Source: Mytilus galloprovincialis (lineage: Eukaryota; Mollusca; Bivalvia; Mytilida; Mytilidae). From it: a DNA stretch of 64,000 bases. Below the pieces are notes generated by a model. It ran no database searches and was not told the DNA's origin. It was given only the letters and a program-made list of their open reading frames with translations. Shown piece by piece: positions 16,375 to 53,265 of this stretch (position 1 is its first letter; each line of letters opens with the position of its first letter). A program made the translations under genes and the position numbers. The DNA lies in assembly GCF_965363235.1 (NCBI RefSeq), contig NC_134849.1:48182122-48246121 (forward strand), read 5' to 3'.

Positions 16375-18430
16375 CCCCCTCCTTTTTTGCACCTTATTCC
16401 TTAACGGTTTGAGCCATAACTCCCAAAGACAATTCTTACCATCCCTTCGTGGTATTCCAATATCCAAAATCTAAATACATGGTTAGAATCATCATATCAA
16501 AGAACCCCAAGAATTCAATTTTTGATGAAATCAAACAAAAGTTCAATTTTGGACCCTTTAGACCTCAATGTGGACCAATTTGATAACCGGTCCTAATTAT
16601 AAAAAATCTAAATACATGGTTAGATTCGGCATATTGAAGAACCCCATATTGAATTTTTGATGAAATTAAACAAAGTTTAATTTTGGACCCTGATTTGGAC
16701 CAACTTGAAAACTGGGCCCATAATCAAACAAGAGTGCACACACTGAAATGTCTCGCCTTCTTTACTAATCATTGATATTGTGTTGATAGTCCTAAGTATA
16801 AAGCTTTATTACAACTGTCACATAAACGTTACATTAACCAAGATAACTAAACAAAGACCAATGAACCATGAAAATGAGGTCAAGGTCAGATGAACCATGT
16901 CAGGCTGACATGTACAGCTAACAATGCTTCCATAAAACAAATATAGTTGACCTAATACTTATAGTTTAAGAAAAATAGACCAAAACACAAAAACTTAAGA
17001 CTGAGCAATGAACCGTGAAAATGAGGTCAAGGTCAAATAAGACCTGCGCGACTAATATATAAATCATAAAATATTTCCATACACTAAATATAGTTGACCT
17101 ATGGCGTATAGTATCAGATAAAAAGACCAAAACTCAAAAAACTTAACTCTGACCACTGAACCATGAAAATGAGGTCAAGGTCAGATGACATCTGTCCGCT
17201 AGACATGTTCACCTTACAATTATTCCATACAACAAATATAGTAGACCTATTGCATAAAGTATGAGAAAAACAGACCAAAACACAAAAACTTAACTATAAC
17301 CACTGAACCATGAAAATGAGGTCAAGGTCAGATGACACCTGCCAGTTGGACATGTACACCTTACAGTCCTTCCATACACCGAATATACTAGCCCTATTGC
17401 TTATAGTATCTGAGATATGGACTTGACCACCAAAACTTAACCTTGTTCACTGATCCATGAAATGAGGTCAAGGTCAAGTGAAAACTGTCTGACGGGCATG
17501 AGGACCTTGCAAGGTACGCACATACCAAATATAGTTATCCTATTACTTATAATAAGAGAGAATTCAACATTACAAAAAATCTGAACTTTTTTTTCAAGTG
17601 GTCACTGAACCATGAAAATGAGGTCAAGGACATTGGACATGTGACTGACGGAAACTTCGTAACATGAGGCATCTATATACAAAGTATGAAGCATCCAGGT
17701 CTTCCATCTTCTAAAATATAAAGCTTTTAAGAAGTGAGCTAACACCGCCGCCGCCAGATCACTATCCCTATGTCGAGCTTTCTGCAACAAAAGTTGCAGG
17801 CTCGACAAAAACTAAGTACATGTTTAGATTCAGCATATCAAAGAACCCCATGAATTAAATTTTTGTTAAAATCAAACTAAGTTTAATTTTGGACCCTTTG
17901 GACCTTAATGTAGACCAATTTGAAGAACGGGACCAAAAATTAAGAATCTAAATACACTGTTAGATTTGGTATATCAAAGAACCCTAATAGTTCAATTTTT
18001 GATGAAATCAAACAAAGTTTAATTTTGGACCCTTTTGGCCCCTAATTCGTTGGGACCAAAACTCCCAAAATCAATCCCAACCTTCCTTATGTGGTCATAG
18101 ACCTTATGTTAAAGTTTCACAGATTTCTGTTTACTTATACTTAAGTTATTGTGCGAAAACCAAGAAAAATGCTTATTTGGGCCTTTTTGGCCCCTTATTC
18201 CTAAACTATTGGGATCAAAACTCCCAAAATTAATCCCAACCTTCCTTTTATGGTCATAAACCTTGTGTTTAAATTTTATAGATTTCTATTTACTTTTACT
18301 AAAGTAAGAGGTCGAAAACCAAATGTCTTCGGACGACGACGATGATGACGACGACGACAACGATGACGACTACGATGCCAACGGGATACCAATATACGAC
18401 CAAAAAATTTCAATTTTTGCGGTCGTATAA
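16375..18430 (+). mobile_element. HL-2 element, interrupted by an HL-1 copy
   Basis: Core repeats share TCTAAATACATGGTTAGATT, CATATCAAAGAACCCCA, AATTTTTGATGAAATCAAAC and TTTTGGACCCTTTGGACC, followed by units with CCCAAAATCAATCCCAACC. Near the right end is a GAC-rich simple-sequence tract (about 18330-18375), then a hairpin formed by ATACGACC (18396) and GGTCGTAT (18421). The internal repeats break off at 16727 and resume at 17809 around an HL-1 copy. No protein is encoded. Confidence 0.65.
16728..17808 (+). mobile_element. HL-1 copy A (Helitron/HINE-like)
   Basis: The element starts ACAAGAGTGCACAC and ends GCAGGCTCGACAA. Just before the 3' end is a hairpin CTGCAAC-AAAA-GTTGCAG, and before that a CCG-rich tract. 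The body has about five core repeats of roughly 150 bases, each with ACCATGAAAATGAGGTCAAGG. It lies inside HL-2. Hairpin plus core repeats suggests a non-autonomous Helitron relative. No target duplication is evident, as expected for that group. Confidence 0.75.
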
Positions 18431-26500: not shown

Positions 26501-29500
26501 AAAGTTATGGTAATACCAACTATAGAAGATTAGTGAGTACTCTTAAAAAGTGATTAGCCTTCTGTCCAAGTTTGGTAGAAATCCAGGATATTTTGAGAAA
26601 GTTATTAAAATTCTAAAATCTTTAACCACAATGTGAATGTAATGTTAACTGACACAAGAGTGCACACGCTGAAATGTCTCGCCTTCTATACTAATCATTG
26701 ATATTATGTTGATAGTCCTAAGTATAAAGCTTAGTTTTATTACAACTGTCTCATAAACTTAACATTAACCAAGATAACTAAACAAAGACCAATGAACCTT
26801 GAAAATGAGGTCAAGGTCAGATGAACCATGCCAGGCAGACATGTACAGCTAACAATGCTTCTATACAACATATATAGTTGACCCATTACTTATAGTTTAA
26901 GAAAAATAGACCAAACACAAAAACTTAACACTGTGCAATGAACCGTGAAAATGAGGTCACCGTCAAATAAAACCAGCGCGACTGACATAAAGATCATAAA
27001 ATATTTCCATACACCAAATATAGTTGACCTATGGCATACAGTATTAGATAAAAAGACCAAAACTCAAAAACTTAACTTTGACCACTGAACCATGAAAATG
27101 AGGTCAAGGTCACATGACATCTGCCCGCTAGACATGTACACCTTACCATCATTCCATACAACAAATATAGTAGACCTATTGCATATAGTATGAGAAAACA
27201 GACAAAAACACAAAAATTTAACTATAACCACTGAACCATGAAAATGAGGTCAAGGTCAGATGACACCTGCCAGTTGGACATGTACACCTTACAGTCCTTC
27301 CATACACCGAATATACTAGCCCTATTGCTTATAGTATCTGAGATATGGACTTGACCACCAAAACTTAACCTTGATCACTGATCCATGAAATGAGGTCGAG
27401 GTCAAGTGAAAACTGTCTGACAGACATGAGGACCTTGCAAGGTACGCACATACCAAATATAGTTATCCTATTACTTATAATAAGAGAGAATTCAACATTA
27501 CAAAAAATTTGAACTTTTTTTTCAAGTGGTCACTGAACCATGAAAATGAGGTCAAGGACATTGGACATGTGACTGACGGAAACTTCGTAACATGAAGCAT
27601 CTATATACAAAGTATGAAGCATCCAGGTCTTCCACCTTCTGAAATATAAAGCTTTTAAGAAGTGAGCTAACACCGCCGCCGCCGTAGCCGCCGCCGGATC
27701 ACTATCCCTATGTCGAGCTTTCTGCAACAAAAGTTGCAGGCTCGACAATAAAAACTAAGTCCATTTATAAGTAAAAAACGGAAAAAATAATTTTATTTTT
27801 ACAAAAATTACTTCTTGCAAATTATCTTATGATCATAAACAAGCTTCTGTTCAAATTTGGTAGAAATCCAGGATAATTTAAGAATGTTATCAAAATGTAA
27901 AGAACTTTAACCACATAGTGAATATGTGTGGACGCTACTGACGACAGATTTGTTTGCTATGTCTTGCTTTTGCGACAATAGTCGCAGTTCGACAAAAAGA
28001 AACAGAATGACAACATTGAAAGTAATACAAAAGGGATGAACCAATTAGTTGACTTATACGATCCACAAAAAGATGATTTTTATACTGGTAAAAACGATGA
28101 TAAAATTTTGCTGCAGGTTTATAAGCTTAAGTTTGGAGGTCTTGAAAAAGAGAAACACAGAAATATGAAATGTGACTCTTAACACCATCAAAGTGTATAA
28201 ATTTGTTGTGAAGAATGTCAGCATCATCGCAACAGTCTGACAAATGAAGTTTTAAATAAACCCATTTTGTAAAAGGAATTTAACTTGTGGCATTGGGCAA
28301 GTATGCCTGATGGAGATTTTGATTTAAAGAAATTATGAGATTTTAAGCACTATCAAGATTATTCAACCAAATTTGGCATTATAGAATGTCTATCAGCAAA
28401 AAGAGGTGACGAAGTTGCCTACAAACTTCTCACAATTTAATGCATTTCTCAATAGTGGATTGATAACATTGTCTTGCATGCGGAAAATGATTTTTAGGGA
28501 GTTCCAAAACTGTTAAAACAACCATTTTCCAGTTTCAGTTACAAACACTAAATAGTATACACTTTTGATGTGCCTTATATTCCGTAATCCTTAATTAAGT
28601 AAGCCCTTAAATACATACCCTTTTACTTTCTTATTTGGTATCTTGAATTATATCTTTAATTTTATAACAAAAATATCAAGTTAGTAAATAGCTGTAAAAA
28701 TGACCAAAAAAATCAGTGAATACCAGTAATCACTGAAACAATTAGTAAATACATGTAATTACTAAATCGGCTAGTAATTACAGGTATTTACTGAAATGTT
28801 TAGTAATTACGTGTAATTCCTAATTTCACCTATTTACTGTAACATATATATCAAATACAGTTATTCTATATATTACTCATAACAACCAAAAAAAAATTTC
28901 AAGTAGTTGTTGAACCATGAAATTGAAGTCAAGGACAATAGACTTTTATTCAGTATACAATGCAAAATCTATGTTAATATATTATACTTTTCACAGACAT
29001 TTTAGGAACAGATAAATATATATATGTTACAATGTATAATTTAAGATATGTAACAACACTCACCTTTGATATTGCTTTTTCCTATCCGTCAACATCTTTT
29101 TAGAATATGCCATACCCTCTGATGCTTTCTTTGGGGGATCTTCATACTAGAATATATCATAAATATTCATTTCAAATATCAACATTAGTTTCAGGATGCT
29201 AGAATAAATCTGAAATCATTATACAGGGTGTAAAAAAGTAGTCAATTCAAAACGACAGTATACTAATGTATATGGTCAACTGTACACGATGACACACAAT
29301 CTAACAAACTGAGTTAGTTAGTTTCCTAGTCTACAGTCTCTGAGGAGTATCACGAAAATGTGTCAATAATCAATATCACCAAAAAAATGGTCAAAACTAA
29401 AAAAAACGTTGTACAATATGATCAGCAACACATAGTTGCATATAGCATTCTAATCAAATATGAGAGCTTTTAGCATTTGGTTTCAAATAAGTTGCATTTA

Positions 29501-32335
29501 CAAGGTGTTCATGTATCACTACTATTTTTTTTCTCAAAGCCCCACAAAAAATTGTCAAAATGGCAACTCAATATTTTCAAATATGCATGGTGGAAAACAG
29601 TCCTACGTACTAAGCATGTGAATTTTCTGCCAGTCTCACAAAAATTTTGTAAATTTTATTATTAACAAGGTGTTATAGACTGAGAAACGACTGCATAAAA
29701 ATCTTTTCCAATTACTAGTACAAAAACCAATATTCCAAAATAAATTCTTAGGTACCTAAACAAATTCTTTTTAAATACTATATACTAGTCCAATTTTTGT
29801 TTACTAGTCTGTCAGTCTGGGATACTGAGACACTATTACCATACAATTGTCACCTGGGACAATAACCAGTGGCGGATCCAGAATTTTTCATAAGGGGGGG
29901 GGGGGGGGGTGGAGGGCAGGCTCCCTGAAAAAAACCTCTAAATCATCCTTTTCTATATTTCTATATATAAATATCATATTTTCTAGATCTATAAAGCAGA
30001 CAATAAACATAAGCTTCATTTTTCAAACAAGTTGCCAAAGTGATTAAATGCAAAGGACACCGTGTTGTTGGCATTTCCATTGATGTTAAACAGCATTTCA
30101 GGATCCTACATAGTGAATATGAGAGGTGTGTTTAGTAAAGGAAAACAACTATGTATAAGAAAAAATTTAAAAAATTGTGTCTGTACATGTATGAGAAGAA
30201 ATATTTTCATCCTTTATAATTCATAATAACAAATTAAAGAACTGCAATATATGTGTCCAAAATGTTCCGTCTCTGACCAAGCTTTTTGTACATGTTCATT
30301 GAATGGAAATAAATGGCAACGCAGTTTAGTTCAAAAGCATTTTAATCTTGGTTGATAAATTAATTATAGAAATGAAGACTTATAGACATATATGCATACA
30401 GCTAAATATCTACTTCTTTGTTGAGGTGCCAATTTTTTCAAGTCAGCTGCATCAATTTTCTTCTTGTTCTTGGCTCTGAATTTGCCATCACCATCATCAT
30501 CTATGGGTGGAAGGTCCTATAAAAAAAAAATTGTATAGATATGTATGAATGCAATGCACATGTACAATGTAACATAGTTTATCAACTGCCTATTCAGAAA
30601 TATGTGCCAACTGAACTTTTGTCGTACCTCATACAATAATTTTCAATTGTGGCATCAGATATTTTGTACTTATTATAATGTCAAGATTTTACGGGAACCT
30701 GCAATAATGGCAGACAAATAGGCCAGTTCCAGGATATGGTTTTTAGGAAGAATCTCTCATGTACGTGACTTCCATCATCATGTGACAAAAATGTATGCCA
30801 GTGTTCTCCCCAGGGCCATTTTGCATCATGGTAATGTGATGCTGTATTTCTAAATGTGATGCTATCTGAATTGATTTTCTTATAGATTGTTTTAAGGGTG
30901 TGACGCTATAATTTTTAAAAACAAGATGGTATTTCCAGGATGCAATATGAAATATCTGGGGTGAACACTGTATGCATTGCCATTTCCAACACATGTTGAG
31001 CAAACGGGTGAAAAAGTTTGATTTTCTACTGCACAAAATATTTGGGAAATTATAAATAATTAAGTCTAATAAGATGGTCACCCTCCCTCAGTCTTTTTCT
31101 TCTTCTTTTAGGTGAACAAGGCTTCAAAACTGAAGAATACATGTTGTTGCGCATGCATGACTGACAAAAATCTATACAAATTCATAAAAATATTTCATAA
31201 CAATTTAAGGGTTTTGTATACATACATAAACCAAAACATGTACATTAAATGCATATTTTTACTCACAATCTGTGTACATGTACACAGATTGTGAGTAAAA
31301 ATATGCATTTAATGTACATGTTTTGGTTTATGTTTATTTGAAGCTCGAGAGAACAGCTGGTGTTTGTCAATCTCTAAAGCTGTCACCCAGTGGTGGTTTC
31401 AATAACAAGTTTGTGGTAGTAAGTTCCATTGAATTATTGTTTGCGGGAAGTATGACCATTTTTACACGTACATGTATGTGTCCTTGAAAGTTTGGTGTCT
31501 GTCTGTCTGAGTACAGTTTTGTCTTATTCTGCTGTCTGTAGTGTTTGTTCAAGAATACAAATGTATGCTATGGAATGGCTATATGATAGTGTATTTCTTT
31601 ATAAAGTCGTATTGGAATCAAGATTACGTACTGACTGAACATAAATTATTTTTATACTACCCTACAGAACGACCATTATGAATGTGCTGGAAACTTTTAA
31701 TCGTGCAATGATACAGGCCAGGGCCTGCCTTCTATCTGTTAAATGACAACGTCATAAACATAAAGGTGTGCAAAATTAAGGATCTTTTTCTGTAAAAGAC
31801 ATAGTTCCAGAAATGATGTATAGGCTACATTCGGCAATCCTCGATAGAATCCGCTATTCTCCTTCTATCCCTGGGCTGTAATACTGTATGTGATATGTGT
31901 CTACGCCTTACATTTCTTCGCCAGAGGATGAACCGGTTTACTACTAGTGCTAATATTTTTAATACTTTATTCCTCTTCTTTACAGGAGATCAGTAATGGA
32001 AACCTACGTATCACAGACGAGGTTAGTGAGGTAAAGAATCAGTCAAGTTGAGACGAATGGTATAGGCTAGTGATAAGGTGTAAAGGAAGTGACCACCCCC
32101 CCGGAATTATCTAACATGAGTGTCGGAATAACTTCAACAAAAGCCAATTTGACTATACCTGGTGCCGATTTGACCAGATAAAGATTTTACCAGGTGTTCA
32201 TTTGACGATACTTCGGTTCGGGATATAAACAACCACTGCAGAAGACAAAATAGTAAGAGGTTCACACTTATTGTCTTTTTTATAATGTGGCAAATTATAT
32301 AAGTTCAATGTATGCAAAAATAATCTCACCGGCAT
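20528..32335 (-). CDS. Unrecognised conserved-looking charged helical protein, probable ciliary gene (nine coding exons)
   Basis: Minus-strand coding exons: 32335-32330 (Met-Pro), 30516-30400, 30105-30061, 29146-29064, 25866-25795, 23548-23491, 21952-21830, 21522-21493 and 20590-20528. All have AG acceptors and GT donors, and the phases join into one 198-residue frame with stop TAG. The N-terminus has an acidic DLPPIDDDGDG followed by a Lys-rich stretch; the middle (KAAEARNRLRIMRLRYQ) and the end (ARRRERIECLLEDEKGLL) are Arg/Glu-rich and likely helical or coiled coil. No catalytic motif, signal peptide or membrane segment is seen. I do not recognise the family. An RFX X-box 95 bases upstream suggests a cilium or flagellum role, which is inference. 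The weakest calls are exon 1 (six coding bases, donor CCG|GTGAGA) and the donors GCT|GTATGC and ACG|GTGTCC. Confidence 0.75.
22115..23090 (+). mobile_element. HL-4 element, second copy
   Basis: It has the same start (CGTCATGAGCACATGATA) and core repeats as 9175-9980, with GAGATACGG-like words near 22191, 22351, 22512 and 22697. The end palindrome is decayed (CCTGTAAAAATTTTGACTGG). It contains a run of about 20 C near 22537. It sits in an intron of the minus-strand gene. Confidence 0.65.
23693..25342. mobile_element. TTAA-flanked element with inverted ends, hosting HL-1 copy B
   Basis: Left end GGGGGCTCCTGGGTATAAA and right end TTTGTACCCACGAGCCACC are inverted repeats with a few mismatches, flanked by TTAA (23689-23692; 25343-25346). 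Without the nested HL-1 the element is about 555 bases. No coding capacity. Confidence 0.7.
23774..24868 (+). mobile_element. HL-1 copy B, nested in a TTAA element
   Basis: Same termini (ACAAGAGTGCAC...CTCGACAA), 3' hairpin CTGCAAC/GTTGCAG and CCG-rich tract as copy A, with five to six core repeats. One unit is damaged (AAAACTTAAAATAAAAC repetition near 24045-24075). Confidence 0.75.
25366..25672 (+). mobile_element. HL-6 element, about 307 bases
   Basis: It begins with hairpin-forming GGGTTCCACAGAACCC and ends with TTCGACTAAAGTCGAA, another hairpin, then GGCGCAACAAAA. The inner text GTTTGGTAGAAATCCAG recurs at about 26570 and 27855. The short body with end hairpins resembles a minimal Helitron-like element. 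Confidence 0.6.
26190..26301 (+). repeat. HL-1 fragment (left part of an interrupted copy)
   Basis: CTTGATTACTGATCCATGAA, GAACATGTAAACATTGCAAGG is HL-1 sequence. It continues at 28845-28950 on the far side of a 2.5-kb insertion. Confidence 0.6.
26654..27748 (+). mobile_element. HL-1 copy C, nested
   Basis: Full-length HL-1 with ACAAGAGTGCACACGC start and GCAGGCTCGACAA end, hairpin and CCG tract, six core repeats. It is close in sequence to copy A. Confidence 0.75.
27775..27998 (+). repeat. HL-6 3' part
   Basis: It matches the right two thirds of 25366-25672 (TTATGATCATAAACAAGCTT, TTTGGTAGAAATCCAGGAT) and ends with a hairpin GCGACAATAGTCGC. Confidence 0.55.
28845..28950 (+). repeat. HL-1 fragment (right part of an interrupted copy)
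   Basis: TCAAATACAGTTATTCTATA and TTGAACCATGAAATTGAAGT continue the HL-1 unit broken at 26301. Confidence 0.55.
29866..29950 (+). mobile_element. Fragment of a CAGTGGCGGATCCAG-type MITE
   Basis: It starts CAGTGGCGGATCCAGAATTT, shared with 48718 onwards, and carries a run of 16-17 G. This end sequence is common to MITEs of many invertebrates. The right end is not resolved. Confidence 0.55.
31224..31333. repeat. Perfect 110-base palindrome with no spacer
   Basis: The two 55-base arms are exact reverse complements around 31278/31279 (centre TGTGTACATGTACACA). It may be a very recent inverted duplication, a cruciform-prone site, or an assembly/library artefact. No protein role is proposed. Confidence 0.85.
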
Positions 32336-33174: not shown

Positions 33175-33831
33175 GTTAACCCGTACCAATGTAAACTTGT
33201 ACCAACGTCAACTCGTACCACTAAAAAAAATCTCGTACCAATGTAAACTCGTACCACTGCTAACTCGTACCAACTTATTTAAATGCATTTGATTGGTGTT
33301 TAATTATGATTAAAGTCTGTAAAATGTATATAATTTGAAAGTACAATGACCAATCTGTAGCTAATGTTCCATGTGTATTAGATATAGACTTGGCATTAAC
33401 ATCCATTCAATCCAGTCACATCTCAGTCATTACAGCTGAACGGACATGCTGGGCCAGCTCTCCTGTACCCGCTATCTTCGATGAGGGTTTACAGTTAGAT
33501 ATCAACGACTTACTACTTAAGATGACAGAAACCAATCAATGCCGTACAGATAGACGTAGTAGTTGGCGTACCTGCGTTAACATGCACTCCAAAACCATTG
33601 TATCATGGGGAGTGTTATGCCGATTAACGTCCGACCTAGCGGGCTGTATCCTAGGCTGTTGGGTGATACGACCTTTATTTCACTGCCTCACGAAAAAACA
33701 CCACAAAACATTCATATTTTTTAATATATTTTTAATGGTACAACTTCCCAGTGGTACGACTTTACGTTGGTACGAGTTAACTTTTTTGGTACGAGTTAAC
33801 ATGGTACGAGTTTCCGTTGGTACGAGTTAAC
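33175..33831. mobile_element. DNA element whose inverted ends are clusters of a CTCGTACCA motif
   Basis: The ends are GTTAACCCGTACCAA and TTGGTACGAGTTAAC. About six copies of C.CGTACCA-like words stand at the left and six of the complement at the right. The centre (33390-33720) is distinctly richer in G+C and open for 146 codons (33390-33830) with no domain I recognise. Similar words, GTGAATTCGAATTAT and GTGAATTCTCATAATT, lie just outside both ends and may be a degraded target duplication. Confidence 0.55.
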
Positions 33832-37383: not shown

Positions 37384-37829
37384 AATGACCGAATAACACT
37401 GTTATTATCCGAATAACACTTGTAATGACCAAATAACAATTGAAATTTTGATATTATCACATATTGGTGACTTTTAAACATTGATTATTAAATAATAATA
37501 TATAATCGATGTATTTTATAACTTAAAATTGATTTACAGAAAGCAGATAAGTTCATAAAGATCATTTTAAATTTAGTGTGTACATCCAGCATGGTGGCCA
37601 TTGTGATTTCCGTGGTCACCATGTTGGATGTACACACTAAATTTAAAGTTATTTATGAACTTATCTGCTTTCTGTAAATCATTATTAAGTTATAAAATAC
37701 ATCAATAATATATACATTTATTTAATAATCAATGTTTAAAAGTCACCAATGTGTGTAAATATTACAAATTTAAGTGTTATTCGGTCATTACAAGTGTTAT
37801 TCGGATATTAACAGTGTTATTTGGTCATT
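37384..37829. mobile_element. Fold-back element with arms of about 215 bases
   Basis: The whole segment is an imperfect palindrome. The left arm starts AATGACCGAATAACACTG and the right arm ends CAGTGTTATTTGGTCATT; the inner arms share AAATTTAGTGTGTACATCCA and its complement. Only about 20 bases separate them (37595-37615). No coding capacity. Confidence 0.8.
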
Positions 37830-38323: not shown

Positions 38324-41300
38324 ATGTTCAAAGTTGTGTGGAACATAATTAAGTCAATATTTTGTTTCATATTCCGTATATTTTCTCCATTGAAGAGATT
38401 AATCTGTAGAAGAAAAAGAAGAGATTCTGATACTATTTTACCATTAACTAATCATTATACAATACCAGAGGACTTTACTACAATACCTAGTAATCAGGTT
38501 AGTATGAGTAATTATGTTTTCTAAAGCCTACAATTCTATTGACTTGTGTTATGTTTAGTTTCTGTGTTCCTTTCTCAGGTACTAAGTGACTTTTTTTTTA
38601 CCTGATCTTGGCAATTTTGCAAACATTAATAAACTATGTTATTTTTCATCTTGCACATTTAACAATACTTTTTTTTTTCTCAGCGATTTTTGAGAGATAA
38701 TTGAGACATGTACAAAACGTTTAAATTCAAATTTGTATATTAATAATTTAAGTTACAATTGAACTTAAAAAAAAGGTCTTTTTACCCACAGTCTGAACTT
38801 CAAGCCTGGGATAGTTGGGAAGCTGATGAAAACAAACAAAAATATAATCAGAATGGGAGGAGCTATCCACATGCCAATCAGAGACAAACATCACATGAGG
38901 AAGAGCCTGAACCAGATTATTTTACAGATATGGTGCCAAAAATTAAAAAGCAGAAAAAAGTAATAAAAAAAATCTTTAATTTTATATTGTAGTTCAAAAT
39001 GTAAAAAAAAAGATTTTTTTTTCGATATCTGTCAGACACATGTCAATTTTGTGACTCATCTTATATAAAAAGTATACACTATTCTGGCAGGCAATGTATT
39101 ATAAAGACTAACTACAATTTCTGTTTGAAAATTATTTAAAGCCACAAAATCAAATGTAATCATAATGCATTATGTTGTGTAGGTCCAGTTTAGTACATGT
39201 ATGCCAGTTTAATGGTCCAGGAACTGTGTAAAATTTTGTTATCTTTTTAACGCTTTATATTAAGTCATTTTAAGTTATTAAAATATAGTTCTCGAGAATA
39301 ATAAGCTTTTCTATTAATACAATTTGTAGAGTCAATGATATTTGGTGCATAGAATTGCTGAATAATAGCACAATTTTTTTTAGGACACCTGACTTTGTAT
39401 TTAATTTTATAGTTCAAAAATTCTGTTTGAGTTTTCAAGATAAATTAGTGTCCAGCAACTTTTAGTTTTAGATCTAATGTAGTTCAGGCCTCACACTACT
39501 TGGGTTGCTGGGTGGTTTAAGTACAATGCAGTACATGTTTATCTAGTGTAACCACTACCCTGTCAATACTCATATCCAGGTGTGTTTGACTCCAAGCTTT
39601 GAAGCATTTCTGATGTGATTAATATTTTTAAGATTGTTTCAAGTTGTTGTAAATGGCAAATAAACATTATTCTAGAATTCTGCAGCTGGAGTGAAATGAG
39701 AAGTGAACTTTATTGTTAATTCTTGTTTCCACAGGTGTTTATAGGAGGAAATAAGAATTCCAATAAATCATCCAACATGTTTGCTGTTAGTAATGATGGA
39801 CCAATTGTTACAGTAAGTATTACAGTGAGTAATGATGGACCAATTGTTACAGTAAGTATTACAGTTAGTCGTGATGGACCAATTGTTACAGTAAGTATTA
39901 CAGTTAGTAATGATGGACCAATTGTTACAGTAAGTATTACAGTGAGTAATGATGGACCAATTGTTACAGTAAGTATTGCAGTTAGTAGTGATGGACCAAT
40001 TGTTACAGTAAGTATTACAGTTAGTAGTGATGGACCAATTGTTACAGTAAGTATTACAGTTAGTAATGATGGACCAATTGTTACAGTAAGTATTAAAGTT
40101 AGTAATGATGGACCAATGGTTACAGTAAATATAACAGTTAGTAATGATGGACCAATTGTTACAGTAAGTATAACAGTTAGTAGTGATGGACCAATTGTTA
40201 CAGTAAGTATTACAGTTAGTAATGATGGACCAATGGTTACAGTAAGTATAACAGTTAGTAATGATGGACCAATTGTTACAGTAAGTATTACAGTTAGTAA
40301 TGATGGACCAATGGTTACAGTAAGTATAACAGTTAGTAATGATGGACCAATGGTTACAGTATGTATAACAGTTAGTAATGATGGACCAATGGTTACAGTA
40401 AGTATAACAGTTAGTAATGATGGACCAATTGTTACAGTATGTATTACAGTTAGTAATGATGGACCAATTGTTACAGTAAGTATAACAGTTAGTAACGATG
40501 GACCAATTGTTACAGTAAGTATTACCGTTAGTAATGATGGACCAATTGTTACAGTAAGTATTACAGTTAGTAATGAGGGACCAATTATTACAGTAAGTCA
40601 TACAATTAGTAATGATGGACCAATTGTTACAGTAAGAATTACAGTTAGTAATGATGGACCAATTGTTACAGTAAGTATTACAGTTAGTAATGATGGACCA
40701 ATTGTTACAGTAAGTATTACGGTTAGTAATGATGGACCAATTGTTACAGTAAGTATTACGGTTAGTAATGATGGACCAATTGTTACAGTAAGTATTACGG
40801 TTAGTAATGATGGACCAATTGTTACAGTAAGTATTACGGTTAGTAATGATGGACCAATTGTTACAGTAAGTATTACGGTTAGTAATGATGGACCAATTGT
40901 TACAGTAAGTATTACGGTTAGTAATGATGGACCAATTGTTACAGTAAGTATAACAGTTAGTAATGATGGACCAATTGTTACAGTAAGTATTACGGTTAGT
41001 AATGATGGACCAATTGTTACAGTAAGTATTACGGTTAGTAATGATGGACCAATTGTTACAGTAAGTATTACGGTTAGTAATGATGGACCAATTGTTACAG
41101 TAAGTATTACGGTTAGTAATGATGGACCAATTGTTACAGTAAGAATTACAGTTAGTAATGATGGACCAATTGTTACATGTTACAGTAAGAATTACAGTTA
41201 GTAATGATGGACCAATTGTTACAGTAAGTATTACGGTTAGTAATGATGGACCAATTGTTACAGTAAGTATTACGGTTAGTAATGATGGACCAATTGTTAC

Positions 41301-44300
41301 AGTAAGTATTACGGTTAGTAATGATGGACCAATTGTTACAGTAAGTATTACGGTTAGTAATGATGGACCAATTGTTACAGTAAGAATTACAGTTAGTAAT
41401 GATGGACCAATTGTTACAGTAAGTATTACAGTTAGTAATGATGGACCAATTGTTACAGTAAGTATTACGGTTAGTAATGATGGACCAATTGTTACAGTAA
41501 GTATTACGGTTAGTAATGATGGACCAATTGTTACAGTAAGTATTACCGTTAGTAATGATGGACCAATTGTTACAGTAAGTATTACCGTTAGTAATGATGG
41601 ACCAATTGTTACAGTAAGTATTACAGTTAGTAATGAGGGACCAATTGTTACAGTAAGTATTACCGTTAGTAATGAGGGACCAATTATTACAGTAAGTCAT
41701 ACAATTAGTAATGATGGACCAATTGTTACAGTAAGAATTACAGTTAGTAATGATGGACCAATTGTTACAGTAAGTATTACAGTTAGTAATGATGGACCAA
41801 TTGTTACAGTAAGTATTACGGTTAGTAATGATGGACCAATTGTTACAGTAAGTATTACGGTTACGGTTAGTAATGATGGACCAATTGTTACAGTAAGTAT
41901 TACGGTTAGTAATGATGGACCAATTGTAACAGTAAGTATAACAGTTAGTAATGATGGACCAATTGTTACAGTAAGTATAACAGTTAGTAATGATAGACCA
42001 ATTGTTACAGTAAGAATTACAGTTAGTAATGATGGACCAATTGTTACAGTAAGTATTACAGTTAGTCGTGATGGACCAATTGTTACAGTAAGTATTACAG
42101 TTAGTAATGATGGACCAATTGTTACAGTAAGTATTACAGTGAGTAATGATGGACCAATTGTTACAGTAAGTATTGCAGTTAGTAATGATGGACCAATTGT
42201 TACAGTAAGTATTACGGTTAGTAATGATGGACCAATTGTTACAGTAAGTATTACGGTTAGTAATGATGGACCAATTGTTACAGTAAGTATAACAGTTAGT
42301 AATGATGGACCAATTGTTACAGTAAGTATTACGGTTAGTAATGATGGACCAATTGTTACAGTAAGTATTACGGTTAGTAATGATGGACCAATTGTTACAG
42401 TAAGTATTACGGTTAGTAATGATGGACCAATTGTTACAGTAAGTATTACGGTTAGTAATGATGGACCAATTGTTACAGTAAGAATTACAGTTAGTAATGA
42501 TGGACCAATTGTTACATGTTACAGTAAGAATTACAGTTAGTAATGATGGACCAATTGTTACAGTAAGTATTACGGTTAGTAATGATGGACCAATTGTTAC
42601 AGTAAGTATTACGGTTAGTAATGATGGACCAATTGTTACAGTAAGTATTACGGTTAGTAATGATGGACCAATTGTTACAGTAAGTATTACGGTTAGTAAT
42701 GATGGACCAATTGTTACAGTAAGAATTACAGTTAGTAATGATGGACCAATTGTTACAGTAAGTATTACAGTTAGTAATGATGGACCAATTGTTACAGTAA
42801 GTATTACGGTTAGTAATGATGGACCAATTGTTACAGTAAGTATTACGGTTAGTAATGATGGACCAATTGTTACAGTAAGTATTACCGTTAGTAATGATGG
42901 ACCAATTGTTACAGTAAGTATTACCGTTAGTAATGATGGACCAATTGTTACAGTAAGTATTACAGTTAGTAATGAGGGACCAATTGTTACAGTAAGTATT
43001 ACCGTTAGTAATGAGGGACCAATTATTACAGTAAGTCATACAATTAGTAATGATGGACCAATTGTTACAGTAAGAATTACAGTTAGTAATGATGGACCAA
43101 TTGTTACAGTAAGTATTACAGTTAGTAATGATGGACCAATTGTTACAGTAAGTATTACGGTTAGTAATGATGGACCAATTGTTACAGTAAGTATTACGGT
43201 TACGGTTAGTAATGATGGACCAATTGTTACAGTAAGTATTACGGTTAGTAATGATGGACCAATTGTAACAGTAAGTATAACAGTTAGTAATGATGGACCA
43301 ATTGTTACAGTAAGTATAACAGTTAGTAATGATAGACCAATTGTTACAGTAAGAATTACAGTTAGTAATGATGGACCAATTGTTACAGTAAGTATTACAG
43401 TTAGTCGTGATGGACCAATTGTTACAGTAAGTATTACAGTTAGTAATGATGGACCAATTGTTACAGTAAGTATTACAGTGAGTAATGATGGACCAATTGT
43501 TACAGTAAGTATTGCAGTTAGTAGTGATGGACCAATTGTTACAGTAAGTATTACAGTTAGTAGTGATGGACCAATTGTTACAGTAAGTATTACAGTTAGT
43601 AATGATGGACCAATTGTTACAGTAAGTATTAAAGTTAGTAATGATGGACCAATGGTTACAGTAAATATAACAGTTAGTAATGATGGACCAATTGTTACAG
43701 TAAGTATAACAGTTAGTAGTGATGGACCAATTGTTACAGTAAGTATTACAGTTAGTAATGATGGACCAATGGTTACAGTAAGTATAACAGTTAGTAATGA
43801 TGGACCAATTGTTACAGTATGTATTACAGTTAGTAATGATGGACCAATGGTTACAGTAAGTATAACAGTTAGTAATGATGGACCAATTGTTACAGTATGT
43901 ATTACAGTTAGTAATGATGGACCAATTGTTACAGTAAGTATAACAGTTAGTAATGATGGACCAATTGTTACAGTAAGTATTACCGTTAGTAATGATGGAC
44001 CAATTGTTACAGTAAGTATTACAGTTAGTAATGAGGGACCAATTATTACAGTAAGTCATACAATTAGTAATGATGGACCAATTGTTACAGTAAGAATTAC
44101 AGTTAGTAATGATGGACCAATTGTTACAGTAAGTATTACAGTTAGTAATGATGGACCAATTGTTACAGTAAGTATTACAGTTAGTCGTGATGGACCAATT
44201 GTTACAGTAAGTATTACGGTTAGTAATGATGGACCAATTGTTACAGTAAGTATAACAGTTAGTAATGATGGACCAATTGTTACAGTAAGTATAACAGTTA

Positions 44301-47300
44301 GTAATGATAGACCAATTGTTACAGTAAGAATTACAGTTAGTAATGATGGACCAATGGTTACAGTAAGTATTACAGTTTAGTAATGATGGACCAATTGTTA
44401 CAGTTAGAATTACAGTTAGTAATGATGGACCAATTGTTACAGTAAGTATTACAGTTAGTAGTGATGGACCAATTGTTACAGTAAGTATAACAGTTAGTAA
44501 TGATGGACCAATTGTTACAGTAAGTATAACAGTTAGTAATGATGGACCAATTGTTACAGTAAGTATAACAGTTAGTAATGATGGACCAATTGTTACAGTA
44601 AGTATAACAGTTAGTAATGATGGACCAATTGTTACAGTAAGAATTACAGTTAGTAATGATGGACCAATGGTTACAGTAAGTATTACAGTTTAGTAATGAT
44701 GGACCCATTGTTACAGTAAGTATAACAGTTAGTAATGATGGACCAATTGTTACAGTAAGTATAACAGTTAGTAATGATGGACCAATTGTTACAGTAAGTA
44801 TAACAGTTAGTAATGATGGACCAATTGTTACAGTAAGAATTACAGTTAGTAATGATGGACCAATGGTTACAGTAAGTATTACAGTTTAGTAATGATGGAC
44901 CCATTGTTACAGTTAGAATTACAGTTAGTAATGATGGACCAAATGTTACAGTAAGTATTACAGTTAGTAGTGATGAACCAATTGTTACAGTAAGTATTAC
45001 ATATTATTATACTTTACTATATCAACCACTAATCAAATAATTCAGACAGTATTCTAGCCAGGATTTGAAAAGGGCAGGGTGCTAGTCAGAAAAAGGGCAA
45101 TTTAAAGCATAAATGTCATTGAAAAAAGGGCAATTATTTAAGTAAAACATAATTAATTAGCATTTAACTTAGGCACTATGGTATAATCAAGATTTTGTTA
45201 AAATTGAGTGATATAATTTAACATTTTTGGCATCTTCTCTTTAACTTTAAACATCTGGGGTCATTTTATGTATACACTCTTTCACACCTATTGAGGCCTT
45301 AGTCTATAGTTTTATTCATTAAGTAACATTCTCTACAGTTTAACCTAGGATGTGTTTGGCAAGCAACATCAAATGAAAGATTTTAACAACCTTTATCAAC
45401 TGGCTTTACAGTCCTTGCTCAGTTGCTCTTCATACAAAATTTAATAATTATCACATTTATACACTTGATAAATCAATTAATGGAAGTTAAGATGTAAAAA
45501 ACAGTTTTCAAAATATATATTATGTAGATGTTTAGGTGAAAAAAAAATTAATGTAATATTCTGATTTCCTGTTCATGAAAGAATTACGAATTTGCTGGTA
45601 TTTCAAAGGCAGAATTGCTGCCATTTTTGGAAAGATTAGAACTTGTTCTAAATCTTTACTAAGGCACTGACCTCCCTAACAACGTGACAGGTTAGCTACT
45701 GTTACTAAATGTATTCACACTGAAATATAGTTCCCTATAGTTCTCATGTATGTGCACATATTTAATACACATATATATGAACTGAAAAAATTGGTATATT
45801 TTTGGAGCAGTTCATCCAAGAATGTATGTAACTAAGGTGTGTTAATGTGCAGGCTTTTTTTTTTATAACATTTTGATTAAGTAATGGGTATTGATACAAT
45901 ACTATAATGATTGACAGCTGTCATTATCACCAAACAATCAGAGACAAGGTGGACCTTTGATTACAATGCCTCACCTCCTAGACTGTCAATCAAATTGACC
46001 ACATTACTTATCAACCTCAGTCTTACATAATTAGAACCTTCAATATACAAATATTTGACCTCATAATTGAATACACAAATGTATATATTAGATATTTGAT
46101 ATATATAAGGATGATAGATTTATTTATTGCCTATTACTTTTGATCAACAATACATAAAGTGATTCTGTAAATTATGTCTGAAAGATAAATGATCAATGGA
46201 TTAACAAGATCTTTAAAAAAATGAAATATGATATAAATATGAATATATAAAAGATATTCAAATTAGGCCTATAATTTACTTTATAAGTATCCAATAATCA
46301 ACTGTAATTAATCAACAATTTAGATTAGTTCACTTATTTTTTTTATGCAGTTAAGCTGCATTATGCGAGCACCCTAGATTTGTGTTCTACCCAATAAATG
46401 CTGAAATACTTGCCATTGTTATTATCTAGCTCGCTTCTATGTTATATATAACTAATTGAACACTTTTTTAATACTTTTTATTCTGGATTACAAAAAATAT
46501 GACCAGAAAAACCTTAAACGATCGTCGATTTATCCAAAAGTTTTGAAGTTACACATAGGAAGTAGTGCTTATTAAGAATCCTTGTGTAGTTCATTATGAC
46601 TTGTGCTTTTGGCCAAGATGTCAAAGAACAATCGTATGAAATATTTAATCGCCGAAAATCTCTAAAGACAAGTAGTTTAAATTTCCCAAATGGCAAAAGT
46701 CGTAGGTATATTGTTTGTCATCAATACGTAGTACAACTACGTCAGTAGTCTATTATATAATAAGTTCAACTGTTCATGCTGTTGGCGGCAATTTCAAATT
46801 AGAAAGAAAATTTTCGTATCTTTTCAATTTGGAGGCAGGTGTGCAAATAAGCGTTGTTCCGAGGTCCGCGACATTCCACTTTTGCAAGCGGAATTTCGAC
46901 TAGGATAGTTGGTTTCTAGCTACGCCCGACGTAGTCACCTTCCACTTGAAAGAAAATAAGAATTAACTTTGCAAACCTGTTCACCAAAGTCTCCAATTAA
47001 ACGAGCTAAAAACTTATTATTATCATTATTATTCATGACAGCGATGTTCATTTTGTTCAACCGCTAGCTTTATACAGAAAATCGCCGATAAATATTGTAT
47101 AAATTCGAGTAAAATCGTATCTGATTGCAAAAACAACATTGTAAACACATAACAATGGCGGCTGTAAAGACACAACTTTACAATATCGGATCCGATTCCG
47201 GAAGCGAATAAGGGTAATTCTGGGTTTGGCGGTCAATTACAAAATAAATCCAAACAGGTGAAAAAATACATCCATGCATGGTAAATGAATATAAACACTA

Positions 47301-50300
47301 GAATTGTAAACCAAAAGATATATGTAAAAGAAAGAAAAAGCAGAAAAAATATTCAATACAGAAACTCAAAATTCTTTTTGACAAATTTCAATTTAAAAAT
47401 CCAATACAACGTGACAGCTGGGAACAGTATATCTAACAATATACATGTTCATGGTCACAGTCTAAATTTTCTTTATCAGTGATAAATGATGATAATGCAT
47501 GTGAGATGCTTTTTAAGTTTAAACATATTACTGCAATTTCGAAGGGTTATTTTTTTATCTCAATTTTGAAGGGTCAATTAAAGTATCTGAAAGTTTCTTT
47601 CTTTATTTTCACAAATAATGCAACTATATTATATATACCTGAATGTAAGTAAATCATATGATATATAGGTAGCATCCTTTGGGCCACTCTACCCCCTCCT
47701 GTTTAATAACTTGGAAACGGTCGAGCTACCCACCCCTAATCCATATGAGGGGCAGATCCAGGATTTTAGGTTAGGAGGGGCGCAAACTTAAATTTTCTTC
47801 GAGCCGAGCGAGGCAAAAAAAAAATTGAGGTAAAATTATCGGAATATTCTTTATTAAGCTGAGAACAACCCATGCTTTGCATACATAAAATTGAGAAAGG
47901 AAATGGTGAATATGTCAAAGCGACAACCATCCGACCATAGAGCAAACAACAGCCGAAGGCAACCAATGGGTCTTCAATGTAGCGAGAATTCCCGCACCCG
48001 TAGGTGTCCTTCAGCTGGCCCCTAAAATATGCATAATAGTACAGTGATACATGTATATATTCATGTTTGTGACAATATAACAAATCAGATGAAATATAGG
48101 GGGAGTCCCTTGGGTCACCCCACCCCTCCTGTTTTATAATTCAAAAATGGTCGAGATCCCCACCCCTAAACCATATATTCATGTATGGGACAATATAACA
48201 AATCAGATGAAATATAGGGGGAGTCCCTTGGGTCGCCCCACCCCCTCCTGTTTGTGAATTTGAAACCCGTTGAGATCCCCACCTCTTAACCATATATATT
48301 GATGTACGGGAAAATATAACAATTCAAATGAAAGATGGGGGAGTCCCTGGGGTCACTGTACACCCTCCTGTTTGAAAACTTGGAAATGGTCAAGATCCTC
48401 ACCCTAAACCATATATACTCATGTATGGGACAATATAACAAATCACATGAGGGAAGTCCCTGTGGTCACCCTAACCCTCCTATTTGAGAACTTGGAAACG
48501 GTCGAGATCCCCACACCAAAACAATATATATTCATATATGGGCCAATATAACTAATTAAATGAAATATAGGGGGAGTCCCTGGGGTCACCCTACCCCTCC
48601 TGTTTGAGAACTTGGAAAGCAATGAGATCCCCACCCCTAAACCATATATATTTATGTATGGGACAATATAACAAATAAAATGAAATGTAGGGGAAGTCCC
48701 AAGGGTCACCCTAACCCCAGTGGCGGATCCAGAAATTTTCATAAGTGGGGGCCCACTGACTGACCTAAGAGGGGGCTCGCTCCCAGTCACGCTTCAGTGA
48801 TTCCCTATATAAGCAACCAATTTTTTTCCCAAAAAAATCCTCTCCCCTCCTACCTGTTTGAGAACTTTAAAACCGTTGAGATCCCCACCCCTAAATTATA
48901 TATATTCATATGTATTGGACAAAATAAAAAATCATTTACATTTACTATGGGTAAGTCGGTCAGACCTCACCTTTGATCCCTGTTGTAGTGAACATTTGTC
49001 TGATTCGTGTCTCATAACTTTTGTACTATAGAACACAAATTCAGTTTTCTTTTCAGGGAAACCAGTCCATTCATACTATTACATGTTCATACTAAGTCAA
49101 CTTGAACTTCTAGCAGTCAAATAAAACCAAGGTTAACTACCAAGTAGAACAACTGCAATCATTGGGAACTTGTACCACTGCCGACTCACCATAAAAAATA
49201 TACATTGCTATATGCATTGCTTTTGAAACCTTGATAACGTATAAATTATTTGCCTTAATAAATAAATCATTAGATAAACATAAATGTAATTTATATGAAT
49301 GTTTAATGTTGAGGCAACTTTGCCACAGTTTTCATAATTACGGTTGCCTTGGTTTTTGGTTAACTGCCTTCAGCGCTTACAGCGCTTTGATTTATTAACA
49401 GGAACTGGCTTGAAACAGTTTTAAAATTGTAAAACTTTTAATTAAAACAAACCATTGTTTATTAATTTATTCCCCGTCAATCATTATGTCTATTTTAGTC
49501 ATTTGAATTTTTATTGTCGAGCCTGCAACTTTTGTTGCAGAAAGCTCGACATAGGGATAGTGATCCGGCGGCGGCGGCGGCGGCGGCTACGGCGGCGGCG
49601 TTAGCTAACTTCTTAAAAGCTTTATATTTTAGAAGGTGGAAGACCTGGATGCTTCATACTTTGTATATAGATGCCTCATGTTACGAAGTTTCCGTCAGTC
49701 ACATGTCCAATGTCCTTGACCTCATTTTCATGGTTCAGTGACCACTTGAAAAAAAAGTTTAAATTTTTTGTAATGTTGAATTCTCTCTTATTATAAGTAA
49801 TAGGATAACTATATTTGATATGTGCGTACCTTGCAAGGTCCTCATGTCTGTCAGACAGTTTTCACTTGACCTCGACCTCATTTCATGGATCAGTGAACAA
49901 GGTTAAGTTTTGGTGGTCAAGTCTATATCTCAGATACTATAAGCAATAGGGCTAGTATATTTGGTGTATGGAAGGACTGTAAGGTGTACATGTCCAAGTG
50001 GCAGGTGTCATCTGACCTTGACCTCATTTTCATGGTTCAGTGGTTATAGTTAAATTTTTGTGTTTTGGTCTTGTTCTCATACTATATGCAATAGGTCTAC
50101 TATATTTGTTGTATGGAATGATTGTAAGGTGTACATGTCTAGCGGGCAGATGTCATGTGACCTTGACCTCATTTTCATGGTTCAGTGGTCAAAGTTAAGT
50201 TTTTGAGTTTTGGTCTTTTTATCTAATACTATATGTCATAGGTCAACTATATTTGGTGTATGGAAATATTTTATGATCTTAATGTCAGTCGCACAGGTTT

Positions 50301-53265
50301 TATTTGACCGTGACCTCATTTTCACGGTTCATTGCACAGTATTAAGTTTTTGTGTTCTGGTCTATTTTTCTTAAACTATTAGTAATAGGTCAACTATATA
50401 TGTTGTATAGAAGCATTGTTAGCTGTACATGTCTGCCTGGCATTGTTAATCTGACCTTGACCTCATTTTCAAGGTTCATTGGTCTTTGTTTAGTTATCTT
50501 GGTTAATGTTAAGTTTATGGTACAGTTGTTATAAAGCTTAGCTTTATACTTAGGACTATCAACATAATATCAATGATTAGTATAGAAGGCGAGACATTTC
50601 AGCGTGTGCACTCTTGTTATTGTCGAGCCTGCAACTTTTGTTGCAGAAAGCTCGACATAGGGATAGTGATCCGGCGGCGGCGGCGGCTACGGCGGCGGCG
50701 TTAGCTAACTTCTTAAAAGCTTTATATTTTAGAAGGTGGAAGACCTGGATGCTTCATACTTTGTATATAGATGCCTCATGTTACGAAGTTTCCGTCAGTC
50801 ACATGTCCAATGTCCTTAACCTCATTTTCATGGTTCAGTGACCACTTGAAAAAAAAGTTTAAATTTTTTGTAATGTTGAATTCTCTCTTATTATAAGTAA
50901 TAGGATAACTATATTTGATATGTGCATACCTTGCAAGGTCCTCATGTCTGTCAGACAGTTTTCACTTGACCTCGACCTCATTTCATGGATCAGTGAACAA
51001 GGTTAAGTTTTGGTGGTCAAGTCTATATCTCAGATACTATAAGCAATAGGGCTAGTATATTTGGTGTATGGAAGGACTGTAAGGTGTACATGTCCAAGTG
51101 GCAGGTGTCATCTGACCTTGACCTCATTTTCATGGTTCAGTGGTTATAGTTAAATTTTTGTGTTTTGGTCTGTTGTTCTCATACTATATGCAATAGGTCT
51201 ACTATATTTGTTGTATGGAATGATTGTAAGGTGTACATGTCTAGCGGGCAGATGTCATGTGACCTTGACCTCATTTTCATGGTTCAGTGGTCAAAGTTAA
51301 GTTTTTGAGTTTTGGTCTTTTTATCTAATACTATATGTCATAGGTCAACTATATTTGGTGTATGGAAATATTTTATGATCTTAATGTCAGTCGCACAGGT
51401 TTTATTTGACCGTGACCTCATTTTCACGGTTCATTGCACAGTATTAAGTTTTTGTGTTCTGGTCTATTTTTCTTAAACTATTAGTAATAGGTCAACTATA
51501 TATGTTGTATAGAAGCATTGTTAGCTGTACATGTCTGCCTGGCATTGTTAATCTGACCTTGACCTCATTTTCAAGGTTCATTGGTCTTTGTTTAGTTATC
51601 TTGGTTAATGTTAAGTTTATGGTACAGTTGTTATAAAGCTTAGCTTTATACTTAGGACTATCAACATAATATCAATGATTAGTATAGAAGGCGAGACATT
51701 TCAGCGTGTGCACTCTTGTTAGATATAAATATATATTTTTGCAATCAAGAAAGAATTCAAATTATAATAAACTATTTTTTTTTAATTTGTTTATGTTGAA
51801 AAGTACATTTTCAATGCCCTGTTTTGAGAAATACGCTACAACTTTTAATCTTCAATGTCATATAACCTAGATGTTTCAACTTAGACAAAATGCCCCAAAA
51901 CAACATATTCAAATTATTTTTGTTGACACTTTAAAGTTCTTAGCTGTTGATCTAGATTTTATGTCTTACAATGATAATTGGAAGCATTTACTAGTACTAG
52001 AGAAATTTTTGATTTGCAATTGTTTGTTTTTTTGAAACATGTTCAGAACAGGCAATATTATTTGGATAAGATATAAACTACAGTTTAAATAAAATTGTTC
52101 AAATTAATAGACCTATATTACTTAATTAAATGAGCTCATTTTATCCTCATACTGGAAAAGCACCTTTCCTTCTAAAGACCTGCTGTTAATCCAATTTTCA
52201 GCAATAGTGCTTTTAAATTATTAATGTTCATTTCCCCCCACCATACCTTAATATGAAATTTTTCAAACTACACTTCTTATCTTTCCATGAGTGATTTCCA
52301 TCACTTTGATTGCCATAAAAACGGCAGGCACCTGAGAAACGACAGAAAAAAGGCAAGGGGGTCAATAAAAAATCTTTGTAGCTAGAACAATGACAGATAT
52401 CACTGTATGCTTCATTCCTTCAAGAAGAATAACCCTTTTTCCTGCAGCAAATATCACATTGATGAAATAACTGTTTTGGCATATCTTTGTAGGGAAAATT
52501 TGTTTTTGGCGCACATTTGCATGTCAAAATATTGATTTGCTGGTTGACGTAATATCGTTAGATTACATCTGTAAACTGAAGTAACTGCCTCAACATTTTG
52601 CTCATTCTCCAATCTAGACACAAAGATTCAAAAAGTGCTAAACAAGTTTGTATACTTTACCGAGTATGCAATAAGTACAGATAGATGAAAAATCTTGACT
52701 TTTCAAGTAAAAGTCTAGAGAAAATTTGCAAATTAATGTCAAATTTTTATGTTTGGTCAAGGAAAATTTAATACATATATCCAAAATTATCAAATCTTTT
52801 TTTCTGTCATGATGTTATACTTCTTTTGACCTGATCATCATTTTTAAGAATAAGTGTATTCTATTTTATATTAATTTTCAAAGTAATTAAAAAAACAAAT
52901 ACTCTTAATCATTTGCTTGAAATAACTTCATTCTCTCACTGAGTAAACAATGGTATGAAAGGAGTTGTTACTTTTAAGTTCTAAAGATTGGTATTAAATA
53001 TTTAATGCAATTTTGATATATGGTATGAAGATTTTTCAATTTTTCTTGATGTTTTTAGGGATCTGAATTAGGAGCATGGGATGATACTCAGACGACTGGA
53101 TGGGAAGGGGAAGGAAATGAAGATTTATCAACGCAAGCTGATGCAGAATTAAGAGAAAAAAGACGACAAGAAAGAGTATATCAACAGCAAAAGAAAAAAC
53201 AGGAGCGAGACTCATCAAGAGGACTACGAAAAGACAAACACTTAACAGCAGTTAAATTATCATAG
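38324..53265 (+). CDS. EBAG9: EBAG9/RCAS1 orthologue (four coding exons)
   Basis: Exons 38324-38497 (58 codons; acceptor at 38310), 38792-38959 (56), 39735-39812 (26) and 53059-53265 (68 plus stop) join in phase 0 into 208 residues; human EBAG9 has 213. Recognition rests on the N-terminal membrane-proximal segment followed by LKRLICRR, on W-D-S-W-E and EPDYF.DM, on SELGAWDD, on the Glu/Arg/Gln-rich C-terminal coiled coil and on the terminal VKLS. The start gives an N-terminus of almost the same length as human, with the hydrophobic SIFCFIFRIF stretch and its cysteine. Known family role: a Golgi/vesicle-associated membrane protein that modulates regulated secretion and binds Snapin. Exon 3 ends in AVSNDGPIVT at ACA|GTAAGT, and that exon end and its donor are the seed of a 5.2-kb tandem array that opens intron 3. 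A candidate AATAAA is at 54036. Confidence 0.9.
39786..45001 (+). repeat. About 134 tandem copies of a 39-base exon-3/splice-donor unit of EBAG9
   Basis: The unit is the end of EBAG9 exon 3 (encoding VSNDGPIVT) plus the donor and the next bases, GTAAGTATTACA. Unit 1 overlaps the real exon end, so the array grew from the exon-intron boundary. With 39 bases (13 codons) and no stop, exon 3 reads on in frame to about 41199 (consensus VSNDGPIVTVSIT). Most units keep ACA|GTAAGT; variants have GTAAGA, GTATGT or GTAAAT. A 7-base insertion near 41180 and again near 42519, a 6-base insertion near 41860 and 43200, and 1-base insertions near 44378, 44690 and 44887 shift or preserve frame. Long antisense frames (TYCNNWSIITNCN) are by-products. 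Confidence 0.95.
45002..46990. other. EBAG9 intron 3, no further gene seen
   Basis: Only AT-rich intron sequence was recognised. A short AAGGGCA-rich stretch at 45068-45135 looks like an old repeat. Confidence 0.4.
46957..47212 (-). promoter_or_regulatory. Promoter-like patch with possible antisense first exon inside EBAG9 intron 3
   Basis: The patch has several CpGs, a YY1-like CAATGGCGGC (47153) and an ETS-like CCGGAAGC (47200). On the minus strand an ATG at 47051 opens 25 codons (MNIAVMNNNDNNKFLARLIG, then DFGEQ) ending at a possible donor CAG|GTTTGC. I found no second exon, so the gene is unproven. Confidence 0.25.
47775..48060 (-). repeat. R2 repeat, reverse orientation
   Basis: On the minus strand it reads TTTAGGGGCCAGCTGAAGGA, GGGAATTCTCGCTACATTGA and CTTTGACATATTCACCATTT, matching the right half of 11485-11765 but less decayed. 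It splits the 120-base array. Confidence 0.65.
48718..48840 (+). mobile_element. MITE with CAGTGGCGGATCCAG end, partial
   Basis: CAGTGGCGGATCCAGAAATT, then GGGGGCCCACTGACTGACC and TTCAGTGATTCCCTATATAA, are typical of a widespread invertebrate MITE. The right inverted end is missing, and 120-base array sequence resumes after it. Confidence 0.6.
49514..50619 (-). mobile_element. HL-1 copy D, first of a head-to-tail pair
   Basis: Complete HL-1 in reverse orientation (TTGTCGAGCCTGCAAC ... GTGCACTCTTGT). It is followed without spacer, apart from TA, by a near-identical copy. The CGG-rich tract is longer than in copy E. Confidence 0.8.
50620..51719 (-). mobile_element. HL-1 copy E, second of a head-to-tail pair
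   Basis: It is nearly identical to copy D (a handful of substitutions, a shorter CGG tract and a 2-base indel near 51173). The same private variants, for example CATTGTTAATCTGACC, show that the two copies share a recent source. Confidence 0.8.
51720..53058. other. End of EBAG9 intron 3, nothing recognised
   Basis: AT-rich intron sequence leading to the acceptor TGTTTTTAG|GGA at 53058. No exon or repeat was identified. Confidence 0.45.

What the first reader, a model, noticed from the sequence alone, without database searches (positions are those of the whole stretch)
39735..45001. An exon end and its splice donor amplified about 134-fold inside EBAG9
Seen: exon 3 of EBAG9 ends ...VSNDGPIVT at ACA|GTAAGT, and that 39-base boundary unit then repeats about 134 times. 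Because 39 is 13 codons and the unit has no stop, each of the first 35 or so donors (to about 41190) leaves exon 3 in phase 0 with exon 4. One gene could thus make a ladder of isoforms differing by 13-residue VSNDGPIVTVSIT steps. The array is also a dense run of U1-binding 5' splice sites near the start of a 13-kb intron, which could buffer splice choice, block premature polyadenylation or trap U1. I know of no described case of a minisatellite seeded from an exon-donor boundary at this scale, but could not search.
Basis: partly seen in the sequence, partly recalled or inferred. Interest (0 to 1): 0.92.

Follow-up and report, generated by a model that had tools for sequence, protein, structure and literature searches.

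The report
Exon-edge minisatellite with repeated splice donors
The end of one exon of an EBAG9-like animal gene, together with its splice signal, is repeated in tandem 133 times at the start of the next intron; a similar case is known in a human gene, and whether the extra splice signals are used here is untested.

Summary
The window carries a four-exon EBAG9-like gene whose exon 3 (39735-39812) ends inside the first unit of a 39-bp minisatellite. I count 133 units, 39786-45001, and both edges fall on unit boundaries. Unit 1, which contains the exon end, is identical to the array consensus, as are 18 other units. By alignment all 133 units keep the main donor GT; 110 have exact GTAAGT. Most units also have a second donor-like GTTAGT in the same phase, 12 bases further on. 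Of 258 donor-like sites tallied, 69 would join exon 4 in frame, the last at 41151. Two perfect 1,346-base head-to-tail stretches show block duplication or over-assembly.

Donor bases change at the average rate (4 distinct changes, 3.7 expected), and an open ladder is about a 0.29 chance outcome. I found no clear sign of selection. Most likely this is a large, young, near-neutral minisatellite, with splicing mainly at the first few donors. No transcripts, related species or reads were available.

The parts
38324..38497 (+). EBAG9-like exon 1 coding part (174 bases), donor CAG|GTTAGT, phase 0
38792..38959 (+). EBAG9-like exon 2 (168 bases), donor AAA|GTAATA, phase 0
39735..39812 (+). EBAG9-like exon 3 (78 bases); its last 27 bases are the first part of array unit 1
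39786..45001 (+). 39-bp minisatellite, 133 units, 27 exon-like + 12 intron-like bases per unit; main donor-like site in every unit by alignment (exact GTAAGT 110, GTAAGA 15, GTATGT 4, GTAAAT 2, GTTAGA 2) and a second donor-like GTTAGT at the start of 122 units
39813..41151 (+). stretch in which all 69 donor-like sites tallied leave an open frame into exon 4 (35 main, 34 secondary)
40839..42184 (+). first copy of a perfect 1,346-base stretch repeated at offset 1,339
42178..43523 (+). second copy of the perfect stretch (overlaps the first by 7 bases)
41151..41196 (+). unit 36 with a 7-base insertion that shifts the frame; donor-like sites tallied from 41185 on do not give an open frame
53059..53265 (+). 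EBAG9-like exon 4 (207 coding bases to the stop)

Best explanation
This is a minisatellite that arose across the exon 3/intron 3 junction of an EBAG9-like gene and grew to 133 units, partly by duplication of whole blocks. Shown: the anatomy, the clean unit edges, the intact first donor and the perfect repeated blocks in this assembly. Inferred: an ancestral single 39-base stretch (27 exonic, 12 intronic) was duplicated. Because the first copy kept the exon, its acceptor and its donor, the gene tolerated the growth. Splicing mostly uses donor 1 and perhaps the next few, giving small amounts of isoforms with 13-residue (or 4-residue) steps. The rest of the array is spliced out as intron and is close to neutral.
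For: The array is 133 units with clean edges, and unit 1 equals the consensus, as do 18 others, sharing the lowest mean distance to all 133 units (1.20). Distinct single-base changes: 24 at 23 of 39 positions; 4 fall in the donor hexamer (3.7 expected), and the chance of both GT positions being missed is 0.28. Synonymous changes: 8 of 24 (25% expected; P = 0.23), so there is no clear constraint on the peptide. A unit length divisible by three (1 in 3) and four stop-free intron codons (0.87) make an open ladder about a 0.29 chance outcome (my arithmetic). Perfect repeats of 1,346 and 456 bases fit growth by block duplication. In human IFI6, two downstream repeat units are used as donors, giving three mRNAs (passage of PMC4526556).
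Against: The five bases ACA|GT are invariant in the 133 aligned units (chance of being missed about 0.037 for a block chosen after the fact), a weak hint of constraint. The array is too homogenised for substitution tests to have much power. No transcript, related species or population data were available. The comparison with the recalled human EBAG9 does not single out donor 1: scores are 241 for donor 1, and 242, 238, 239, 228 and 215 with 4, 13, 17, 26 and 39 extra residues; exon 3 left out gives 200.
Confidence: 0.62

Rival explanations
1. A used isoform ladder: many of the 35 main (and 34 secondary) in-frame donors are spliced, so one gene makes EBAG9-like proteins with a variable run of VSNDGPIVTVSIT repeats.
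For: 69 of 258 donor-like sites tallied join exon 4 in frame; 30 main donors in the first 35 units, donor 1 included, share its 9-base context exactly; IFI6 uses two downstream units as donors, giving three mRNAs.
Against: An open frame here is about a 0.29 chance outcome (and arithmetic); the array breaks frame at unit 36, and 185 of the 258 sites would give a stop more than 50 bases before the last junction; no clear sign of selection on codons; no RNA data.
Confidence: 0.2
2. The array acts on the pre-mRNA as a dense U1-binding tract near the start of a long intron, guarding against early polyadenylation or buffering donor choice.
For: 106 of 651 array GT sites, donor 1 included, pair with U1 as well as donor 1 does, against 2 in the remaining 8,057 bases of intron 3. 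The array has no AATAAA (but two ATTAAA); the rest of intron 3 has ten AATAAA, two of them overlapping.
Against: The ten AATAAA lie at 46393-52364, the nearest about 1.4 kb past the array, beyond the roughly 1 kb reach of U1 protection that I recall. Donor bases change at the average rate. The predicted pairing is moderate (-7.5 kcal/mol; the exon 1 donor is -10.1, U1 end recalled).
Confidence: 0.08
3. Copy number is wholly or partly an assembly product: a real but shorter array was lengthened when repeated blocks were joined.
For: Two perfect 1,346-base head-to-tail stretches that include the 7-base and 6-base insertions, and a perfect 456-base stretch repeated 3,536 bases away.
Against: Recent block duplication gives the same pattern. 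The two ends of the array differ in unit types, and 30 unit types are present.
Confidence: 0.1

Closest known systems
[quoted passage not shown] title seen in the reference lists of two papers, the paper itself not held)
   Same: By its title, a minisatellite that provides multiple splice donors; two downstream repeat units are used as donors, giving three mRNAs (passage in PMC4526556). That it spans the exon end and keeps frame is recalled.
   Different: By recall, its unit is 12 bases and the array about 26 units; here 39 bases and 133 units, most with two donor-like sites. Use of several donors was reported there and is not shown here.
Notothenioid antifreeze glycoprotein repeats from a trypsinogen intron-exon junction
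   Same: A short, partly non-coding sequence straddling a splice junction was amplified in tandem (passages of PMC3449122 and PMC8622921).
   Different: There a 9-base unit at the first intron-second exon junction became the main coding sequence; here the donor side, with the copies mostly in the intron by the simplest gene model.
Ordinary intronic minisatellites (VNTRs)
   Same: Unit length, array length and repeated blocks.
   Different: This one starts inside an exon and repeats the splice donor.

Membership tests
Minisatellite | Head-to-tail units of about 10-100 bases over 0.5 kb or more (definition recalled) | tested here: met
   39 bases, 133 units, 5,216 bases
Minisatellite | Copy number differs between individuals | not testable with these tools
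   No whole genome or reads held for this window
Donor-supplying minisatellite (IFI6 kind) | Array starts in the exon end and each unit carries a donor GT | tested here: met
   27 exonic bases in unit 1; main GT kept in 133 of 133 aligned units
Donor-supplying minisatellite (IFI6 kind) | Longer exons stay in frame for at least the first units | tested here: met
   35 main and 34 secondary donor-like sites open to the natural stop
Donor-supplying minisatellite (IFI6 kind) | More than one donor is used in mRNA | not testable with these tools
   No transcript data
EBAG9 (RCAS1) | Protein similarity over most of the length, including LKRLICR, EPDYF.DM and a C-terminal VKLS | tested here: met
   73 of 215 aligned positions identical, E 1e-27, against a human sequence typed from recall; Pfam-A gave no family
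Junction-seeded coding repeat (AFGP kind) | The repeats are translated as a main product | tested here: inconclusive
   Frame open for 35 main donors, but no clear codon constraint and no expression data

The most novel reading that the evidence does not exclude
EBAG9 in this animal makes a real ladder of isoforms whose length distribution is set by a hypervariable array of tens of nearly equal in-frame splice donors, so that splice-site choice, protein length and minisatellite copy number are tied together and differ between individuals.
Probability: 0.15. Interest if true: 0.75.

Novelty: new member of a known kind. Interest (0 to 1): 0.45.

Why it matters
If the array is real at this size, it is a natural experiment on donor choice: over a hundred nearly identical 5' splice sites at regular 39-base spacing behind one acceptor. 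It would show directly how far exon definition reaches and how a gene survives such growth. It also adds a large animal example to the small group of splice-junction-seeded repeats (IFI6, AFGP).

Tried and rejected
Pfam gave no family for the exon 3/repeat peptide or for the spliced protein, so gene identity rests on a recalled human sequence. Exact search for a 23-base core of the unit gave 0 matches in viral contigs and 0 in genome contigs. With the spliced protein, 6 viral and 38 genome stretches matched a short pattern, none of them a relative by tblastn. These collections are viral and prokaryotic, so the misses say nothing about related animals. No further unit copies (ungapped, 24 of 39 matches or better) lie elsewhere in the window on either strand.

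RNA folding of 39735-39930 gave z = -0.79, so no special structure there. The reverse-strand open frames of the unit were set aside as by-products of its composition. Homology as a way to polarise exon versus array was tried and failed: nine random residues in place of the exon-end nine scored as well as the real ones in 93 of 1,000 trials, and the human comparison does not separate donor 1 from the next few. Paper searches gave nothing that I used; 35 (telescripting) gave background listings only; 34 led to prawn lectins with tandem repeats (PMC7536079, passages), which lie inside an exon and not at a splice junction, so I do not count them as a precedent.

Full report
What is there. The window contains a four-exon coding model for an EBAG9-like gene: exon 1 38324-38497, exon 2 38792-38959, exon 3 39735-39812, exon 4 53059-53265, all introns phase 0, a 208-residue product. 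I built the model by eye from frame, splice signals and similarity; no transcript supports it. The product aligns over most of its length with human EBAG9 (73 of 215 aligned positions identical, E 1e-27), but the human sequence was typed from recall, and Pfam-A gave no family.

The array. Exon 3 ends ...GTTAGTAATGATGGACCAATTGTTACA|GTAAGTATTACA. These 39 bases are unit 1 of an array of 133 units from 39786 to 45001. The left edge (TTTGCT|GTTAGT) and right edge (ATTACA|TATTAT) both fall on unit boundaries, so one unit in place of 133 would read as a simple exon-donor-intron sequence. There are 30 unit types, counting insertions. Unit 1 equals the consensus, as do 18 other units, and these share the lowest mean distance to all 133 units, 1.20 changes. 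This fits seeding from the exon but does not prove it; conversion of the exon end by array units is not excluded.

Donors. As exact letters the main donor hexamer is GTAAGT in 110 units, GTAAGA in 15, GTATGT in 4, GTAAAT in 2 and GTTAGA in 2. The alignment scores GTAAGT in 112 and GTAAGA in 13, because it hides the altered donors of units 36 and 70 in their insertions. Donor 1 is weaker than the exon 1 donor (-10.1) and stronger than the exon 2 donor (-3.2) by this measure.

Predicted products. I tallied the 258 GT sites from 39813 on with one of seven donor-like hexamers (of 651 GT sites in all; the others were left out). Of these, 69 join exon 4 in frame with no early stop: 35 main sites, the last at 41139, and 34 secondary sites, the last at 41151. 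A 7-base insertion in unit 36 then breaks the frame, and no tallied site from 41185 on is open to the natural stop. Of the 189 that fail, 185 place a stop more than 50 bases before the last junction, which by the usual rule (recalled) would target the mRNA for decay.

Is the open ladder special? A unit length divisible by three has a prior of about one third, the nine exon codons are stop-free because they code, and 87% of GTAAGT plus six window bases are stop-free. The product, about 0.29, is unremarkable.

Selection tests. Counting each distinct base change once, insertions left out, gives 24 changes at 23 of 39 positions. Four fall in the six donor positions (3.7 expected). The chance that both GT positions are missed is 0.28. 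Eight of 24 are synonymous against 25% expected (P = 0.23). Against the neutral reading, the five bases ACA|GT are all untouched (0.037, block chosen after the fact). So there is no clear sign of constraint, with low power because the array is homogenised.

Growth. Among offsets of 30-3,999 bases scanned, the longest perfect repeat is 1,346 bases at offset 1,339 (40839-42184 and 42178-43523), carrying the 7-base and 6-base insertions; the next is 456 bases at offset 3,536. Growth was therefore by recent block duplication, or was exaggerated in assembly.

Most likely working. I commit to a near-neutral minisatellite tolerated because donor 1 and the upstream acceptor stay intact, with splicing at donor 1 and perhaps the next few. 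The IFI6 case, where two downstream units act as donors and three mRNAs result (passage, PMC4526556), is the model. Use of any donor here is inferred, not shown. The human EBAG9 comparison fits donor 1 and the next three donor-like sites about equally (241, 242, 238, 239) and longer forms less well (228, 215).

Precedent. Searches of open PMC papers (some listings were partial, as 24 of 26 and 8 of 20) showed no report of this array. They did lead to IFI6 (passages in PMC4526556 and a reference entry in PMC2572611; [quoted passage not shown] I had recalled both cases before searching.

Limits. No genome, reads, transcripts or related animals were available. The search misses in viral and prokaryote collections carry no weight.

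Noticed in passing
37384-37829: Fold-back element about 446 bases long: 121-base arms 88% complementary, with further nested inverted repeats down to a 12-base centre; the outer arms hold 20-base tandem repeats.
   Followed up: partly
33178-33831: Stretch bounded by inverted tandem repeats of a 16-mer (AACTCGTACCAATGTA and its near-complement) at both ends, with a 146-codon open frame that runs into the right arm; Pfam gave only a below-cutoff match.
   Followed up: partly
31224-31333: Perfect 55-base inverted repeat with no spacer, possibly natural, possibly a sequencing or assembly fold-back.
   Followed up: no
728-2197: Open frame with a partial reverse transcriptase match (PF00078, E 1.7e-11), probably a retroelement remnant.
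   Followed up: partly
16856-17476, 24110-24443, 26787-27428, 49867-50495, 50967-51597, 57793-58123: A tandem repeat of about 147 bases, alike by eye (TGACCTTGACCTCATTTTCATGGTTCAGTGGTCA or its complement), occurs six times in both orientations.
   Followed up: no
58417-59285: 168-base tandem repeat, 5.2 copies, 94% matches.
   Followed up: no
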